Shown here in pieces: positions 4,600 through 39,368 of a DNA stretch of 60,000 bases; the first letter of the stretch is position 1; each line of letters starts with the position of its first letter. The stretch comes from Bolinopsis microptera (taxonomy: Eukaryota; Ctenophora; Tentaculata; Lobata; Bolinopsidae). The notes under the pieces were generated by a model, which ran no database searches, was not told the origin of the DNA, and saw only the letters and a program-made list of their open reading frames with translations. The stretch is taken from NCBI RefSeq assembly GCF_026151205.1, contig NC_087074.1, forward strand, positions 8,537,726 through 8,597,725, read 5' to 3'. Made by a program: the position numbers and the translations under genes.

Positions 4600-7122
4600 C
4601 TAGGCGGATTCCATGTCAGTATCTTGCTGAGTGCTGCTAGTTGGAACTTCCTCGTCTTCTTCTAACCTCATCTTCTTCGTAGATCTAGTCGCAGACTCAA
4701 CTTGTGATCTGACCGAAAATCTCTTTACAACATGTCTTTTAACAATAACCGATGAAGAACCAGATTCGACGTTATCCAGGAAGGCTTTTAAAAAGTCGGG
4801 TGGGTTGCCATGTTCCACATAGAGTATCAGTGAGCAATACACCCGAGCACGGGATACAGCGAGGTACACCCTGGTCAGAAACTCTCGGTAGAGTGTCCTT
4901 CTGTCTATCGAAATTAGGCCAACAACTGCAGCCCATTCTCTGGAATAGCAGTATCGTATCTTTTCCGAGCAGCTTTCAAGATCATCATCAAGTGTTAGAT
5001 TATGAGTAGGCACCCGTTTGCTCTTAATCTTTGGATTGGTCAATCGCACAATTTGAAAGTCTTCATGTTTGCTAAGTTTTCGTATCTTTCCGTTGGCATT
5101 GCTCTTTTTGTCCTGCAAGTCTAGAAGTCCCATTTCTCTTCTCAATATTTCGTTTATTTTATCGGTTAATTTACCGCCCTTGTTTGACAGTACTAAATTA
5201 ACCACTACTTTAGGCCCATGAATATAATGAGAGTACTTTTGTGATGGAATTATTGTCGTTGAATCGTGGAAATCTCCTTTAAATTGTTCTCTTACTACCG
5301 AGAGAAGAGAGGATACCTCGTATGAATTTCTCATGTTTGATTGCAGGGTTATCATTTTCATGTGAGTCTCTATACTTCGTATGGCTTGGTCTATTGCTCT
5401 CGCATCTTCCTCCGATTTTGGATGGTAAAACAATTGAACAGCATCAACAGTCATTCGTACAAATGAACACTTGTTGATGCTAACGATAAGCTCTTCAAAT
5501 GACTTTGCAGACTTTGGGGTCAAAAGGCACTGAATGTCGTCAATTAATATTTTGCAGTCTTTGAAATATTCTATTATCTGGCGTAAAGTGTCCAAAAAAT
5601 TTCGTGAATAGTCAATGATAGTGATCGAAAATAACAAGATCTTTTCAGAGGACTCCTCTGCAGTTTCTTTTATTTTACTGAGGCTATTTGCTTTTAAGTT
5701 ATTTCCAATCTTCTTGAAATAATACTGAAGATTTGCTCTCTTGATTATTTCAATGTAGGCAGCTGTGGCTCTATGTCCAAACGAGAAAACTACCACCCTC
5801 TCCTCTGAAGAGACATCCATTGCTATATTGAGCAATTTTGTCTGAAGAACTATAGTTTTTCCAGTTCCAGCTGGTCCGTTGATCAGCAAACGGTCACTTT
5901 GATCATCTAAAGCAGCCTTTTGGGTTTCTCGAAGATATTTTATGTCTAGAATTTTCATTTCTTCAGTAGCTGTGATGACCTCGGTATTGTTGTGCAAAAT
6001 TTTTCCCCCTTTCTTAAATTCACGTGTGACTTTACTGGTACGAAGATTATCGTCTATGTTTTTGACATCAATTCCAAACTGATCATCTGTTGAACTTCCA
6101 CTAAGACCAGTCACAATTTCTTTAATCTCTTCTTTCAATGGTGTAGTAAACTGCAGCTGAAGTTGACCTTCGATGTCAACATTCCACCACAAGTTAAAAT
6201 TGTGAAAATCGTCTTTAAACAGAATCTGAGTGTCTGATTGTGGGTGTTTCGCTAGATATTCCGCTAGATATCCCTCTGCATCCTCCTTTTTGATTAGAGG
6301 AAATGTACAAAACTTAAATATAGGCTTTGGAGATCCAACAACTAGCTCCATGATCCGTTTCAGGAACTTTTCCGTCCTCTCTGTTTGTTGGATGCCCTTG
6401 CCGAGGTTATCTGCTTTTGCGATCTTTTCTAATCGACAGTGTTTAACCTCAAATGTCGCGAAAAAATTCTTCCCGATCACTAGAAAATCAGTTTCGCCTT
6501 CCGGATCGCTGCACTGTTTGTGACAATGATGGGGTTCTTTTCGTTTGCATCTGCCGGCTGTACAGTCATGATCAGGAAAGACTGCTTCGAACAAAAGGTG
6601 GTCGTATTTAAACCCATGCAAAATCACACAATGTTTCTTCATTCTTTCCAGTGCCCGAAAAACTATTACCTCCGCTTCATACTCCATTGATGATTTTTGT
6701 TCCTGTCGTTCATTCTCACTCATGTCTAATTTGTCTCTGTGTATGAGGTCGATGTGTTTGGAAAGGTTTGGTATTGATGGAATCATTATAGAATATCCAT
6801 CCCATTCATTTCCACAGTATCTGTTTAGAATTTTTCTTCCGGTCTCTCCAAACAATTCCTGAATGTAAAATACCGACTCATCTGAAAAGTAAACAGTACT
6901 CAAGGGAAGAAGGGACGAAAGTTATGCACGTTTTTTACTGAGCGACGCAAGAATGATGTTCTATTTTTAAGATTACTCGGATAATGTTTTTATTTTACTG
7001 CTTATCTATTTAACAGCTGAACGGCATACTCTATATTACTTACCGGCTGTCAATGCGTGTTTGTTTTTGATTTTCTCCTCCATTTCTTCAATGTTCCAGA
7101 ACAATCGTTGCACACCCTCCAT
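4600..7122 (-). CDS. NERD-like nuclease fused to SF1 helicase-like ATPase, copy 1
   Basis: Two exons: complement(4600-6881, 7044-7122), 786 residues. The ATG at 7122 opens a 79-base exon that ends in GTAAGT. The acceptor TTTTCAG lies at 6882-6888 and the phase-1 join restores an Asp codon. Residues ~90-200 look like a PD-(D/E)XK/NERD nuclease: Glu97, GETDF at 155-159 and EVK at 171-173. A Cys/His insertion (Cys133, Cys138, Cys146-His) sits just before the active-site strand. Then come Walker A GPAGTGKT (362-369), a Walker-B-like LIDD (473-475), LQSNMRNS (539-546) and a motif-VI-like AVSRAR (701-706), the order expected for an SF1 helicase. The tail is acidic/Ser-rich with a small basic patch. 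The domains predict DNA or RNA cleavage coupled to ATP-driven translocation; the biological role is unknown. It is a tandem paralogue of the gene at 8511-11057. A TTTATT at 4456-4461 is a possible poly(A) signal on this strand. Confidence 0.85.
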
Positions 7123-8510
7123 GGCCTTTCGCCTCGATCTATCCCTAGCTTTGGATAAAATATAAGTTATATTCACAATCCAGGGCTGAGTCGAATTTTG
7201 GCAATTGATACAATTTCCGAGGATCTTTTTTCAATATCGGAAATATCGTGAACGAGGTTCCTTTGACGCAGGATCCTCTCTAGATAAAAATGTGTTGTCA
7301 CCAAATCCACTTGAACGAAATTTCTCGATGATTAAGAAATTTATGCTGAATAAGTAATTAATGTACAATATTTAGGACGTACAGAAGTTTTACCTCTTTT
7401 TAGCAGATTTTACAACGTTTTTACTTCGATGAGCATACAACACTTACCTAGCTATATCACAATTATAAAGTACAATTAGAATACGAATGAATCACTGATA
7501 TGGAATGTAACTAGAACAAAGTAAACCACATCACAATACTACGTGCGGTATGTAGAGACCTCTGAGGGGTCACACACACTTACATTCACTCTGAAATTCC
7601 AACATCAATTAAATACTGAGCCACCTTGTGTGAGGTTTATGTTAACGCTGTAATACAGAGGTACGCATAATGCTCCATCATATGTAACTTGATCCTCACC
7701 AATGCAGCCATACAGGGTATTAATATTCATATTTCGTAGCGAATGACCTACTTTAATATGTTATAGTATATGCCTTGATATTCCGTCTTAGTCATAGGCT
7801 GCAGTAGCCCATACTGTTAGTACTATTGTACTGGGTCAGTCGTCTCCATGCTATCACGCTATTCGCCTCTGGAGTCGAGCTTTACCCCGCCTTGAAAAAC
7901 CCGGGTTAAATATACCAACCGTCAAAACGGTAAATGTGGCTGTTATCACTTTTTTGTGGATCAACTTAAAGAGTTGCGTACACTACAAAGGAGTTACATA
8001 TTTTGTTTAGTTGGTGGAGGTTGTGGGTTCGAGACCGAGTGTGGTGTTAAAATTACAAACCCAAAACTTTTTTATATTCTAGAACAGCAAATGGATTTAA
8101 ACTGCTGTGCAAATTTATTGTATGGATAATGGCGACGTATAGGAATTCAGTATGAGTTCGAACAAATAATAGCTTACACAGTTATGAATAATTATTTTGT
8201 TATAATTTTTGAATTTTACGTCTAAATATAATTTAGAAAGAATAACATAATGAACATTATTTTACGTTAATGATACATACTTTAAAATAATGGGTAATTA
8301 ATGGTATATAGAACAGTGAAAAAATATTAATCAATGAAAAACACTTCTACAAAAAATAGAAAATGTGGTACAGTATTAAAATCAATACGAAAACAATCAA
8401 CATGACGTATTAACTTTAAAAACACCACAAAACTTGATCTGAACTTAATAAACAATTAAAGTATTGTGATAGCCCGTAACCAACGACTGATAACTATAAC
8501 TAGGTAGGTA
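7123..8510. other. Spacer between the two nuclease-helicase genes
   Basis: AT-rich and non-coding. It should hold the promoter of copy 1 (right of 7122 on the minus strand) and the 3' flank of copy 2. A tRNA B-box-like string (GGTTGTGGGTTCGA) near 8020 probably marks a SINE remnant. No further exon of either gene is visible. Confidence 0.5.
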
Positions 8511-11057
8511 TTAGTTAACCGAATCCTGTTTAACATTTATATTATATATATTTATATTATATATATTATATTTCTTAATAATCGCTGTATCGCTAGATTC
8601 TACACTATCCAAAAATCTGCTGAAAAATGGCGGCGGCTTACTTTCTCTCATGAAAAATATAAGGGAGCAGTAGACACGAGCTCTTGAAGCAGCAAGATAA
8701 ACCCGCGACAGGAACTCTTTGTATGTCATGTTACAAGGACAGATCAATGCAATTACTGCGGCCCATTCTCTAGAATAGCAATTTCGTATCATCTCGATAT
8801 CAGTCCCTGAACTCATAATGTTTCTAAGCTTTTCACTCATTTTGTGACTGTCTGCTACTTCAAAATCCTTTATGTTCTTAAACTCCAGGACCCGAACTTT
8901 ATCGTTTTCAATTGTATTTCTCCTTCCTAACGCCCCAACTCCAAGCAGCCCAAATTCTCTCTCGGTGACGCTGATTATTTTATCACTTAGTTTTGCACGT
9001 TGACTGGATGACAAAACATGAATGACCGGTTTGGCTCCGTGTATATAATGAGAGAAATTTTGTGTGGACATCAGGGTTCGGTCTATGTTTGGAAATTCAC
9101 CTCTCAGGTCTTCTCTAACGACAGCTAACAGCCGGGACATTTCATAAGAGTTTCTTAAGTTGGATTGTAGTGTAACTATCCTTGCGTGAGCTGTAATGCT
9201 GTTAAGAGCCTCCGCTACGGTTGATATACCACCTTCTGAACTCGGGTAGTAAAACAGTTGGGCTGCATCAATGGCAATACGAGCAAATGAACATTCGCTC
9301 AGAGTCCTCAGAAGTTCCTGGAATTTCTGGGAGACGTTAGAGTAGTACTCGAGTGATGTCTTTTTTGAGCTTGGTACAATAAAGTATTGTACGTCATCCA
9401 TAAAGATACATTGATCTTTTAGTAACTCCACCATTGCGTTGATTCTGCCTAAAAACTCAATTGGGAACGAGAAAATGGTGATTGAAAAAATTAGAACTTT
9501 TTTGTCCTCGGAAGTGCTCTGTATCAGCGATTCAATGTCCTCGATTCTGGTATCGTTCTTAATCCTCTTAAGATAGCATGCAATACCCGCTGCTATGATA
9601 CAGCTCTCGTGAAAAAGTGCCGCCTGGTTACCGATTGTGAACAAAACTATCTTTTTGTTGACACTTGGGTACTTAGCCATTTGCATCAGTTTAGTCAACA
9701 TAATCACAGTCTTTCCTACTCCTGCTGGTCCATTAAGAATAACAACTTTTTCATCACAATCTAAAGCTGTTTTTTGGTCATCTCTAATGTAGCTAATGCC
9801 GAGAATTTTCATCTCATTGCATGTCTCGTGGACCTGAGCATTGTTGAGAACTGGGCGACCCTTCTTGTTTTCACGAGTTATTTTGCTCTTCCGAAGATTT
9901 TCATCAATTTTGATGATACATTTTCCCATATCAAAGCTCTCTGCGGTACCTACTATACCAATAACGACAGATTTCACATTCTCAGATATGGGTTCGTATC
10001 CTCGACCACGCGTTTCTACGTTCTTCATCCACCACGGATGGAAATTGATGAGAACATCTTCAAACAATAATTGTTCTCCTCTCACAGGGTTTTGGCATGT
10101 GTTTTCATTCAGTGCGTCTTCGAGGTATTGTCTGGCTTCGTTTTCTTGTAAGAAAGGAAATGCATAAAACTGAAAGACTGGGTTCATATCTGCGTCGTTT
10201 CCGTATATCTCTATGATTCTTTTAAGAAATTTTGCAGCTTTATCTGCTTGATTTTTACCTTTACGAAGGTTTTGCTCAATGTTCTCCGGCTTGCAGTGCT
10301 TCACCTCGATAATGGCGAAATAATTTTTTCCAATTACAAGAAAATCAGTCTCTCCTTCGAGGCCCCGATTTTCTTTATGACAAGCATGATCACCCGATCG
10401 ACGGCACTTGTCTGATGTACAGCTGTGATATGAGAAAACTTGTTCATACAGTAAATGTTTAAACTCAACCCCATGCAGAACAACGCAATTCTCCCGCAAT
10501 TTCTCTAATAATCTGTAAACAGTGACTTCAGCCTCATATTCCATCCGCATATCCTGATCCTGCCGTTCAGTTTCGGACATCGCTGCAGAATCAATCGTTA
10601 TTAGATCGAGACGCTGTTGGTTAGGAACTGGAGGGCACATAACTGAGGATCCATCCCATTTCTCGTTGCAATGTGCTCGGAGCACCTTTTTTCCTGGTTT
10701 TCCATAGCTATTATCTAACACTGCAATTTGTGAATCGAAAGTATTTCCTCTCACTTCGCCTGAAAGTTTTCCTCGATTAATGTTTAAATATCAATATCTT
10801 AGTTTTAAGTCATACTAAATATCCATATTTTCTATATAAAGCCTGTGAATCACTGCGACTAATTAATTGTAAAAAGGTGACAATAACCGAGTATACTACC
10901 GTAATTTCTGATGAAATATCGGATCTTATATCACTCTGTCTATCTTCAACTTAGAATTATAGGTTTTTAGATCAAATTAAGCCTCACCTTGTGCTTCAGT
11001 ATTATTTTGAGGGTCCTCGTTTACGTTATAAAGCCCATCCTCATCCTGATTTGACAT
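8511..11057 (-). CDS. NERD-like nuclease fused to SF1 helicase-like ATPase, copy 2
   Basis: Two exons: complement(8511-10759, 10988-11057), 772 residues. Exon 1 starts at the ATG at 11057 and ends CAAG/GTGAGG. The acceptor CTTTCAG precedes 10759. The intron is phase 1 and in the same place as in copy 1, which supports both models. The nuclease core is intact: the MEYEAEV helix Glu, GETDF at 159-163 and EVK at 175-177. The Cys/His insertion is kept (Cys137, Cys142, Cys150-His). Walker A is GPAGVGKT (367-374), the Walker-B-like site is FMDD (~476-479), then LQSNLRNS and a C-terminal AASRAR. The last residues are Asn/Ile/Tyr-rich because an ATATT microsatellite (~8535-8575) runs into the reading frame, so the C-terminus has drifted. 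The first-exon peptide is unrelated to that of copy 1. Same family function as copy 1; partners unknown. Confidence 0.85.

Positions 11058-34478: not shown

Positions 34479-39368
<4,890 letters not shown>

What the first reader, a model, noticed from the sequence alone, without database searches (positions are those of the whole stretch)
4600..11057. Tandem nuclease-helicase fusion genes in an animal-type genome
Seen: both genes keep an intact PD-(D/E)XK triad (helix Glu, GETDF, EVK), Walker A, a Walker-B-like IDD/MDD and a motif-VI-like (A)SRAR, in the order NERD-like nuclease then SF1 ATPase. Known: NERD and SF1 fusions are best known from prokaryotes, where such pairings turn up in DNA processing and phage defence. 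Inferred: a locally amplified, possibly fast-evolving nucleic-acid defence or transposon-control gene. The locus is embedded in transposon-rich DNA. The two proteins share motifs but differ widely elsewhere, and their N- and C-termini are unrelated.
Basis: partly seen in the sequence, partly recalled or inferred. Interest (0 to 1): 0.85.

Follow-up and report, generated by a model that had tools for sequence, protein, structure and literature searches.

The report
Comb jelly's huge nuclease-helicase gene family
Two neighbouring comb-jelly genes encode a nucleic-acid-cutting enzyme fused to an unwinding motor, like proteins of bacterial antivirus systems, and belong to a family of more than a hundred copies in this animal, some of them fragments, that may be an uncharted branch of its immunity.

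Summary
The observation largely holds. Gene A (7122..4600) and gene B (11057..8511), both minus strand, encode an N-terminal NERD-type PD-(D/E)XK nuclease, then an SF1 helicase. They are 41% identical over 737 columns, so "differ widely elsewhere" is wrong. The genome is a ctenophore's (photoproteins match berovin and mnemiopsin), probably Bolinopsis microptera. The pair belongs to a genome-wide family: NERD over Pfam's cut-off at 114 places; 142 merged loci, fragments included. Catalytic residues are near-invariant in the 57 sequences read. Profiles show homology across both domains with bacterial NERD/DEAD-box helicase proteins (E 1.6e-26), a domain type also found in anti-phage systems. Nuclease and Walker A are constrained; the stretch between Walker A and Walker B has pN/pS about 1.4, though that region was chosen after a first scan. 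Nuclease and helicase halves have been exchanged between paralogues. Best reading: an expanded, diversifying nucleic-acid defence family working like bacterial nuclease-helicase immunity proteins. Function is inferred; nothing tested immunity. Structure prediction was uninformative; other animals could not be searched.

The parts
7044..7122 (-). Gene A, exon 1 (predicted, start codon at 7122, donor GTAAGT)
   Evidence: ATG-initiated segment ending in phase 1 before GTAAGT; joined to exon 2 it gives a 786-aa frame with no internal stop. No transcript evidence.
4600..6881 (-). Gene A, exon 2 (main exon: nuclease, middle region, helicase, stop)
   Evidence: Open frame 6921..4600; acceptor TTTTCAG just upstream of 6881.
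6277..6741 (-). Gene A nuclease domain, frame residues 61-215 (NERD-like, PD-(D/E)XK)
   Evidence: PF08378 E 0.0059 on residues 138-207; profile alignment of the family to bacterial NERD. Borders are mine.
6442..6498 (-). Gene A catalytic core GETDF...EVK (residues 142-160)
   Evidence: E143 56/57, D145 56/57, E158 57/57, K160 55/57 family members.
6523..6600 (-). Gene A His/Cys insertion in the nuclease (H108, H118, C125, C133), possible metal site
   Evidence: H108 51/57, H118 46/57, C125 43/57, C133 51/57; the bacterial profile has a gap here. Metal binding is inferred.
4732..5946 (-). Gene A SF1 helicase region (residues 326-730)
   Evidence: Borders are mine.
5854..5877 (-). Gene A Walker A GPAGTGKT
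   Evidence: Lys in 56/57 members.
5542..5781 (-). Gene A residues 381-460: fast-evolving stretch between Walker A and Walker B (its place suggests the 1B region; inferred)
   Evidence: Pooled pN/pS 1.42 at kappa 2, 1.44 at kappa 2.1, measured on 15 pairs of paralogues, not on A and B themselves.
5536..5541 (-). Gene A Walker B-like IDD (D461, D462)
   Evidence: D461 56/57, D462 55/57.
4843..4854 (-). Gene A motif VI-like SRAR
   Evidence: R691 50/57, 7 rows gapped.
10988..11057 (-). Gene B, exon 1 (predicted, start codon at 11057, donor GTGAGG)
Evidence: No transcript evidence.
8511..10759 (-). Gene B, exon 2 (main exon)
   Evidence: Open frame 10790..8511; acceptor CTTTCAG just upstream of 10759.
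10131..10595 (-). Gene B nuclease domain (about frame residues 66-220)
   Evidence: PF08378 23.0 bits, over its cut-off of 22.1, residues 86-193.
10299..10355 (-). Gene B catalytic core GETDF...EVK
8583..9800 (-). Gene B SF1 helicase region
   Evidence: Borders are mine.
9708..9731 (-). Gene B Walker A GPAGVGKT
9393..9398 (-). Gene B Walker B-like MDD
8676..8687 (-). Gene B motif VI-like SRAR

Best explanation
Both genes are members of a large ctenophore family of NERD nuclease-SF1 helicase proteins, homologous across both domains to bacterial 'NERD domain-containing protein/DEAD/DEAH box helicase' proteins (shown, by profile comparison). Most likely mechanism (inferred): a motor that loads on foreign or abnormal nucleic acid, such as replicating viral or transposon DNA or a protein-coated intermediate, translocates with ATP, and cuts with its conserved PD-(D/E)XK site, as proposed for bacterial Nhi. 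The constant parts (nuclease, Walker A) are effector and engine; the variable stretch between Walker A and Walker B, and perhaps a second one before motif V, would be the surface that meets the target or a pathogen inhibitor. The repertoire grows by tandem and interchromosomal DNA duplication and is reshuffled by exchange of nuclease and helicase halves.
For: Identity: NERD over cut-off (gene B; 114 places); hhalign of 25 ctenophore vs 8 bacterial proteins prob 99.7, E 1.6e-26 over 505 columns spanning both domains; nuclease halves alone prob 97.3, E 1.7e-11. Enzyme kept: catalytic residues near-invariant in 57 sequences, from 57 of the 127 loci then known. Pattern of conflict: pooled pN/pS over 15 disjoint pairs at kappa 2 (measured kappa 2.1): nuclease 0.44, Walker A 0.44, residues 381-460 1.42 (one-sided P 0.0012); pN higher there than in the nuclease in 12 of 14 pairs covering it (Wilcoxon P 0.0006). 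Repertoire: 142 merged loci, 51 within 50 kb of another against 7.7 expected. Shuffling: L007/L043 pS 0.79 in the nuclease half vs 0.14 in the helicase half, P 3e-42; L011/L014 the reverse, 0.06 vs 0.46, P 7e-22 (55 pairs tested). Of 6 bacterial kin fetched, 3 lie beside a helicase gene, 2 beside DUF1998 and 1 of these also beside a DarT-family gene; a review table lists PF08378 in Mokosh type I and Nhi-like systems (PMC10952713, passages).
Against: No expression, infection or biochemical data. The region 381-460 was picked after a sliding scan of 12 of the 15 pairs, so its P values are not those of a prior test; at kappa 1 it is 1.21 with P 0.055; no codon-model test was run, and recombination disturbs local pS. 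Other regions do not exceed 1 significantly at kappa 2. PADLOC matches of the ctenophore proteins are short (about 35-125 residues) and nearly all in the ATPase; gene B has none. AlphaFold2 models were poor (mean pLDDT 31.5 and 39.7), so no fold check of the nuclease. Fast turnover also fits families that fight transposons, or selfish genes. The loci read were chosen for long open frames or high scores, so intactness is overstated for the family as a whole.
Confidence: 0.6

Rival explanations
1. Genome guardian: the family acts against the animal's own transposons (cutting extrachromosomal or replicating transposon DNA), not against outside pathogens.
For: Nuclease-helicase chemistry and an expanding, diversifying family fit conflict inside the genome equally well.
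Against: None specific: transposon content around the loci was not measured, and no link to a transposon family was looked for beyond the flank comparison.
Confidence: 0.17
2. The genes are cargo of, or are themselves, mobile or selfish elements, and copy number reflects self-propagation.
For: Copies on all 13 large contigs; fragments and copies with stops are common in the listings. In three comparisons with L032 (L029, L030, L033) homology starts at the same base, 38 bases before the frame, and ends 117-146 bases after it, which on its own would suit an element with fixed ends.
Against: The start shared by those three lies at L032 and looks peculiar to L032: L029, L030, L044 and L036 share further upstream sequence, and L029/L044 or L009/L039 match to the end of the fetched DNA. 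A small GT..AG intron-like stretch ahead of the frame is kept in 6 of 8 copies aligned (by eye), which speaks for DNA duplication rather than retrocopying. Nuclease pN/pS is below 1 in 14 of 14 pairs where it could be computed. Flanks examined were only a few hundred bases.
Confidence: 0.12
3. An ordinary DNA-repair or replication nuclease-helicase (Dna2- or AddAB-like in role) that has undergone neutral duplication.
For: The domain pair resembles repair nuclease-helicases; the family profile's PDB hits are a PhoH-like protein (E 3e-4), PcrA (9.9e-4), DNA helicase IV and, weaker, AddA and UvrD.
Against: 142 loci, median pairwise identity 34% among 57 members, and region-specific pN/pS above 1 are unlike a housekeeping enzyme.
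Confidence: 0.08

Closest known systems
Bacterial 'NERD domain-containing protein/DEAD/DEAH box helicase' proteins (for example WP_111070928.1, WP_089451289.1; PADLOC models RTasNERD-Hel and C3a187 'NERD+UvrD')
   Same: Same order, NERD nuclease then SF1 helicase; profile homology across both domains, prob 99.7, E 1.6e-26; same GExDF...E(V/L)K and GPAG.GKT motifs.
   Different: The bacterial proteins used are 535-576 aa; ctenophore frames are mostly 700-1,100 aa, with a His/Cys insertion in the nuclease and longer middle and variable regions. About 17% identity in the profile alignment. Over a hundred NERD-bearing places in one genome.
Nhi (nuclease-helicase immunity, Staphylococcus epidermidis)
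   Same: [quoted passage not shown] The PADLOC Nhi model hits L023 at E 4.5e-5 and L027 at 0.0026.
   Different: The match is limited to 44-63 residues of the ATPase; genes A and B do not match it; SSB triggering untested.
Vertebrate Schlafen group 3 proteins (SLFN5, SLFN11)
   Same: Animal proteins with an SF1 helicase; the bacterial relatives' profile hits SLFN11 at E 8e-17 and the ctenophore profile hits SLFN5 weakly, 0.046. Their nuclease and virus-restricting role is recalled.
   Different: Schlafen carries a different, non-NERD N-terminal nuclease (recalled); PF09848 matches are below the cut-off.
NLR / NACHT receptor repertoires of invertebrates
   Same: Large, clustered P-loop NTPase family; one member (L017) carries C-terminal ankyrin repeats.
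   Different: The NTPase has SF1 helicase motifs, not NACHT (PF05729 15.9 bits against a 26.7 cut-off in gene B); an enzymatic nuclease instead of a death-fold adaptor.

Membership tests
NERD nuclease (PF08378) | Score over Pfam's curated cut-off | tested here: met
   Gene B 23.0 vs 22.1 bits, met; gene A 17.5, not met. Genome-wide, 114 places over the cut-off, best 43.1 bits, E 9.8e-9; 2 of 14 control genomes ring.
NERD nuclease (PF08378) | PD-(D/E)XK catalytic residues kept | tested here: met
   D145 56/57, E158 57/57, K160 55/57, Q179 57/57.
NERD nuclease (PF08378) | Restriction-endonuclease-like fold | tested here: inconclusive
   AlphaFold2 gave pLDDT below 50 over nearly all of the nuclease region.
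SF1 helicase (UvrD/HelD/Schlafen-type) | Walker A, Walker B, motif III (D..Q), motif IV Arg, motif VI | tested here: met
   K355 56/57, D461 56/57, D493 55/57, Q496 55/57, R531 54/57, R691 50/57 with 7 gapped. Motif numbers are assigned from recalled knowledge of SF1.
SF1 helicase (UvrD/HelD/Schlafen-type) | Over a Pfam SF1 cut-off | tested here: not met
   Genes A and B: UvrD-helicase 22.9 and 13.4 (cut-off 23); SLFN-g3 21.9 and 14.9 (cut-off 24). Relatives L016 (28.1) and L023 (24.2) do pass UvrD-helicase.
Bacterial NERD-SF1 helicase family | Homology across both domains in the same order | tested here: met
   hhalign A4 vs A3, columns 103-717 vs 16-547, E 1.6e-26; nuclease halves alone E 1.7e-11. 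With fewer sequences (11 vs 3) only the helicase part aligned.
Nhi anti-phage system | Full-length match to the Nhi model | tested here: not met
   Only a short ATPase stretch in L023 and L027, of 10 ctenophore proteins scanned; none for genes A and B.
Nhi anti-phage system | Activation by viral SSB and degradation of viral DNA | not testable with these tools
   Needs biochemistry.
Schlafen | Schlafen N-terminal nuclease core plus SLFN helicase | tested here: not met
   N-terminal domain is NERD-like; no Schlafen core among the families listed at E <= 1; PF09848 below cut-off.
NLR / STAND receptor | NACHT or other STAND NTPase over cut-off | tested here: not met
   NACHT and nSTAND models below cut-offs in genes A and B. 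Relatives L017 and L028 pass NPHP3_N (31.0 and 26.9 vs 24.8).
Immune gene family | Diversifying selection and repertoire turnover | tested here: inconclusive
   Turnover and exchange of halves are clear; pN/pS above 1 in one region depends on kappa and the region was chosen after a first scan.
Immune gene family | Response to infection | not testable with these tools
   No expression data held.

The most novel reading that the evidence does not exclude
Probability: 0.4. Interest if true: 0.9.

Novelty: new variant of a known kind. Interest (0 to 1): 0.72.

Why it matters
How the earliest-branching animals fight viruses is open. A recent survey of immune genes in Mnemiopsis and two other ctenophores searched 20 Pfam domains, and the word NERD does not occur in its main text (PMC11797021, passages), so a family of this size could have been missed or filed under other P-loop domains. 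If the reading is right, nuclease-helicase immunity of bacterial style is used on a large scale by a living animal, and the constant-plus-variable layout makes target recognition directly testable with domain swaps that nature has already made.

Tried and rejected
Viral origin: scans of IMG/VR with the family alignment (600 stretches matched a pattern, 0 relatives by tblastn) and with bacterial L057 (no pattern match), and tblastn of L016 against 50,697 phage records (no match at E <= 1e-3), gave nothing. PHROGs matches of 5 proteins lie in the ATPase region. NCBIfam gave 0, 0, 1 and 1 weak hits for four proteins.

L023 against plasmids gave 2 weak helicase matches (E 0.1 and 0.01). The profile A1 found one weak P-loop match in the 3 genomes of those loci. 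No close donor was found, so horizontal transfer is an inference; a tree with other eukaryotes was not possible.

Solved structures: gene A alone has no match better than E 0.57.

Structure: gene B alone, mean pLDDT 31.5; gene A with B and three bacterial sequences, 39.7, 58 residues at 70-90. Foldseek (best E 1.4e-5, TM 0.12-0.18 to the query in the 50 rows shown) and VIA-align (best Z 7.7, none at 8 or more) list assorted P-loop motors, helicases and NSF/Sec18 alike, over residues 301-706. I draw no fold conclusion; no nuclease fold appeared in the rows shown, which is not evidence of absence.

RIG-I C-terminal domain (PF11648) and STING (PF15009): no match in the genome, but the control set was silent too, so this does not show absence; not used.

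Retrocopying as the route of spread: set aside because 6 of 8 aligned copies share a small GT..AG intron-like stretch ahead of the frame (by eye).

Papers: searches whose listings showed no paper that by its title treats NERD-helicase genes of animals: 19 papers; 20 of 274 listed; 0; 8; 25 of 14,095 listed; 0; 7. PMC11184263, PMC13231562 and PMC6005172 were searched for terms only: 'NERD', 'helicase' and 'nuclease' occur 0 times in each. The library is open-access only, so this does not show that nothing is in print.


Full report
What is in the sequence. Two long uninterrupted minus-strand frames occupy 6921..4600 (gene A, 773 aa) and 10790..8511 (gene B, 759 aa). Each has a short upstream exon: A 7122..7044 and B 11057..10988, with GT-AG introns in phase 1 in both genes, giving 786 and 772 aa (spotted by eye, no transcript data).

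Domains. Pfam's NERD nuclease model (PF08378) matches B over its curated cut-off (23.0 vs 22.1 bits) and A below it (17.5 bits); several P-loop ATPase and helicase models match both, all below cut-off. Relatives in the same genome match better: L025 NERD 33.2 bits and L016 UvrD-helicase 28.1 bits, L023 ResIII 31.9 and UvrD-helicase 24.2 bits.

Which animal. The window also holds alpha-tubulin-like frames (recognised by eye). Tandem arrays of EF-hand frames encode photoproteins; one, L061, matches berovin (E 1.1e-123) and mnemiopsin (5.5e-121) in the PDB. The assembly has 264.65 Mb in 232 contigs; contigs C1-C13 sum to 258.07 Mb, 97.5% (my sum of lengths). Published Bolinopsis microptera: 13 chromosomes, 97.23% of bases in 13 scaffolds, 265 Mb, 346 scaffolds (PMC10232365 and PMC11797021, passages). 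So the host is a ctenophore, most likely B. microptera; the scaffold number and the percentage do not agree exactly.

How many. Gene A as query gives 71 matches, with 58 of 271 candidates scored; PF08378 gives 114 places, all over the cut-off, where 2 of 14 control genomes ring. Merged, 127 loci. Three further queries, L033, L016 and L006 (62, 55 and 76 matches at E <= 1e-6), raise the merged count to 142 loci, 80 of them spanning 1.9 kb or more. The count is rough both ways: only the best candidates are scored, fragments and copies with stops are included, a broken gene can count twice, and loci seen only through NERD span a few hundred bases and so cannot enter the 80. Of the 114 NERD places, 70 lie in open frames of at least 650 aa. 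51 of 142 loci start within 50 kb of another, against a mean of 7.7 (maximum 20) in 500 random placements; split genes inflate this somewhat.

Constraint on the catalytic sites. I read 55 further loci, so 57 of the 127 with A and B, chosen for high scores or long open frames. Among the 57: E84, E92, E158 and Q179 in 57, E143 and D145 in 56, K160 in 55, Walker A Lys in 56, D461 in 56; of 49 rows covering all listed sites, 47 keep D145, E158, K160, K355 and D461 together. Median pairwise identity is 34%, with close pairs up to 95%. A conserved H108/H118/C125/C133 set (51, 46, 43 and 51 of 57) sits in an insertion that the bacterial profile lacks; metal binding is my inference.

Relation to bacterial proteins. 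All three are proteins of 549-575 aa with GETDF or GECDF...E(L/V)K followed by SF1 motifs; L057 matches PADLOC RTasNERD-Hel end to end (E 2.5e-35). With L057 as query, plasmids gave 14 records, several annotated as NERD domain-containing proteins or helicases. I fetched 6 of the 14: L069 and L070 lie beside a helicase-related gene, L071 beside a DEAD/DEAH-box helicase, L072 between a sigma factor and DUF1998, L074 between DUF1998 and a DarT-family gene, L073 without a listed neighbour. In 198 sampled genomes of L057's phylum, 4 had a match at E <= 1e-10, its own included. Profile comparison: 11 ctenophore vs 3 bacterial sequences, prob 98.1, E 7.4e-14, helicase only; 25 vs 8, prob 99.7, E 1.6e-26, 505 columns across both domains; nuclease halves alone, prob 97.3, E 1.7e-11. 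This is the main identity result.

Selection. Nei-Gojobori counts give whole-gene dN/dS of 0.34-1.11 for the 32 closest pairs; A vs B is saturated. A sliding scan of 12 disjoint pairs showed the peak between Walker A and Walker B (1.85 in residues 401-440) and lows of 0.26-0.35 over most of the nuclease and at Walker A. I then set regions and pooled 15 disjoint pairs, these 12 among them, with sites near gaps removed: at kappa 2, nuclease (61-215) 0.44, middle 0.55, Walker A (326-380) 0.44, 381-460 1.42 with one-sided Fisher P 0.0012, 461-500 1.22 (P 0.11), 501-580 0.70, 581-655 1.20 (P 0.135), 656-700 0.85, C-terminus 1.28 (P 0.21). At kappa 1 the value for 381-460 is 1.21 (P 0.055), at kappa 4 1.64 (P 6e-6). 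Kappa at 2,424 four-fold sites of 12 pairs is 2.1. A Bonferroni factor of 9 leaves P about 0.011 at kappa 2, but the region was set after the scan, so this is support, not proof. In 12 of 14 pairs covering the region pN is higher than in the nuclease (Wilcoxon P 0.0006); in the 14 pairs with overall pS below 0.25 the value is 1.55 (P 0.00025, kappa 2.1). That this stretch corresponds to the 1B region of SF1A helicases is inferred from its place.

Exchange of halves. Of 55 pairs with pS under 0.25 in at least one half, the strongest contrasts are L007/L043 (nuclease half 0.79, helicase half 0.14; P 3e-42), L043/L046 (0.77 vs 0.16; P 5e-39) and L011/L014 (0.06 vs 0.46; P 7e-22). L007 and L046 are close relatives, so the first two probably reflect one event. 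In L011/L014 divergence jumps from under 9% to 45% after about residue 360, just past Walker A. Recombination or gene conversion between paralogues is the natural reading. It also makes local pS uneven, so ratios from single pairs should not be over-read.

Spread. Copies on different contigs share DNA beyond the frame for tens to hundreds of bases. Three comparisons with L032 begin at the same base and end close together, which could suggest fixed ends, but other copies share more upstream sequence than L032 does and some pairs match to the end of what I fetched. I favour DNA duplication; the flanks seen are short.

Variants. L017 continues into ankyrin repeats (PF12796, E 8e-71; further repeat units downstream in L064); L025 has two NERD-like units, the first without the EVK glutamate (sequence); L021, L022 and L024 have a hydrophobic N-terminal stretch and a long spacer between nuclease and helicase (by eye); L075 carries a tandem 26-residue repeat in the middle region.

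Mechanism. Shown: conserved nuclease and ATPase residues, homology, expansion, region-specific divergence. Inferred: that it binds and cuts foreign or abnormal nucleic acid. The nearest worked example is Nhi, for which activation at replication complexes with phage SSB has been proposed (PMC10732053, passages); a review table places PF08378 in Mokosh type I and Nhi-like systems (PMC10952713, passages); NERD as a possible backup effector in BREX PglW is discussed in PMC12839542 (passages).

Against. No functional data. Structure prediction failed to give a usable model, so the nuclease fold rests on sequence profiles. PADLOC matches of the 10 ctenophore proteins scanned are short and nearly all in the ATPase; exceptions are weak matches in the nuclease region of L026 (HEC-02B, E 0.00057) and L023 (a Cas2 model, E 0.032); gene B has none. 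I could not search other animals, so 'ctenophore-specific' is not claimed; nor could I date or root the family. Origin by transfer from bacteria is likely but untested.

Verdict. It is a new variant of a known kind (bacterial NERD-SF1 helicases), in an unusual setting and number.

Noticed in passing
G000 C13:11082760-11094295, C5:17013039-17026356, C1:21999721-22006881, C3:3415799-3427318 (one unit each: L059-L062): Four tandem arrays of EF-hand photoprotein-like frames with spacing mostly about 940-1,030 bases; one unit, L061, was compared with the PDB and matches berovin and mnemiopsin.
   Followed up: partly
window 34479-35003 (-) and 36549-37094 (-): Two near-identical alpha-tubulin-like C-terminal frames about 2 kb apart (by eye), apparently a recent tandem duplication.
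   Followed up: no
L017 242-3301 and L064: A family member whose frame runs from nuclease-helicase into a long ankyrin-repeat array; the frame stops in L064 and more ankyrin units follow downstream.
   Followed up: partly
L025 998-4399 (-): Two NERD-like units in one frame, the N-terminal one lacking the EVK glutamate: a possible inactive regulatory copy (by eye).
   Followed up: no
L075 3104-5800 (-): A 26-residue unit of the middle region repeated many times in frame, within a 1,783-aa open frame.
   Followed up: no
L021, L022, L024: Members with a hydrophobic, possibly membrane-spanning N-terminus and a long spacer between nuclease and helicase (by eye).
   Followed up: no
L072 1847-2121; L074 1-185 and 1995-2106: Bacterial NERD-helicase genes on plasmids next to DUF1998 (both loci) and a DarT-family gene (L074), which looks like a defence neighbourhood.
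   Followed up: no
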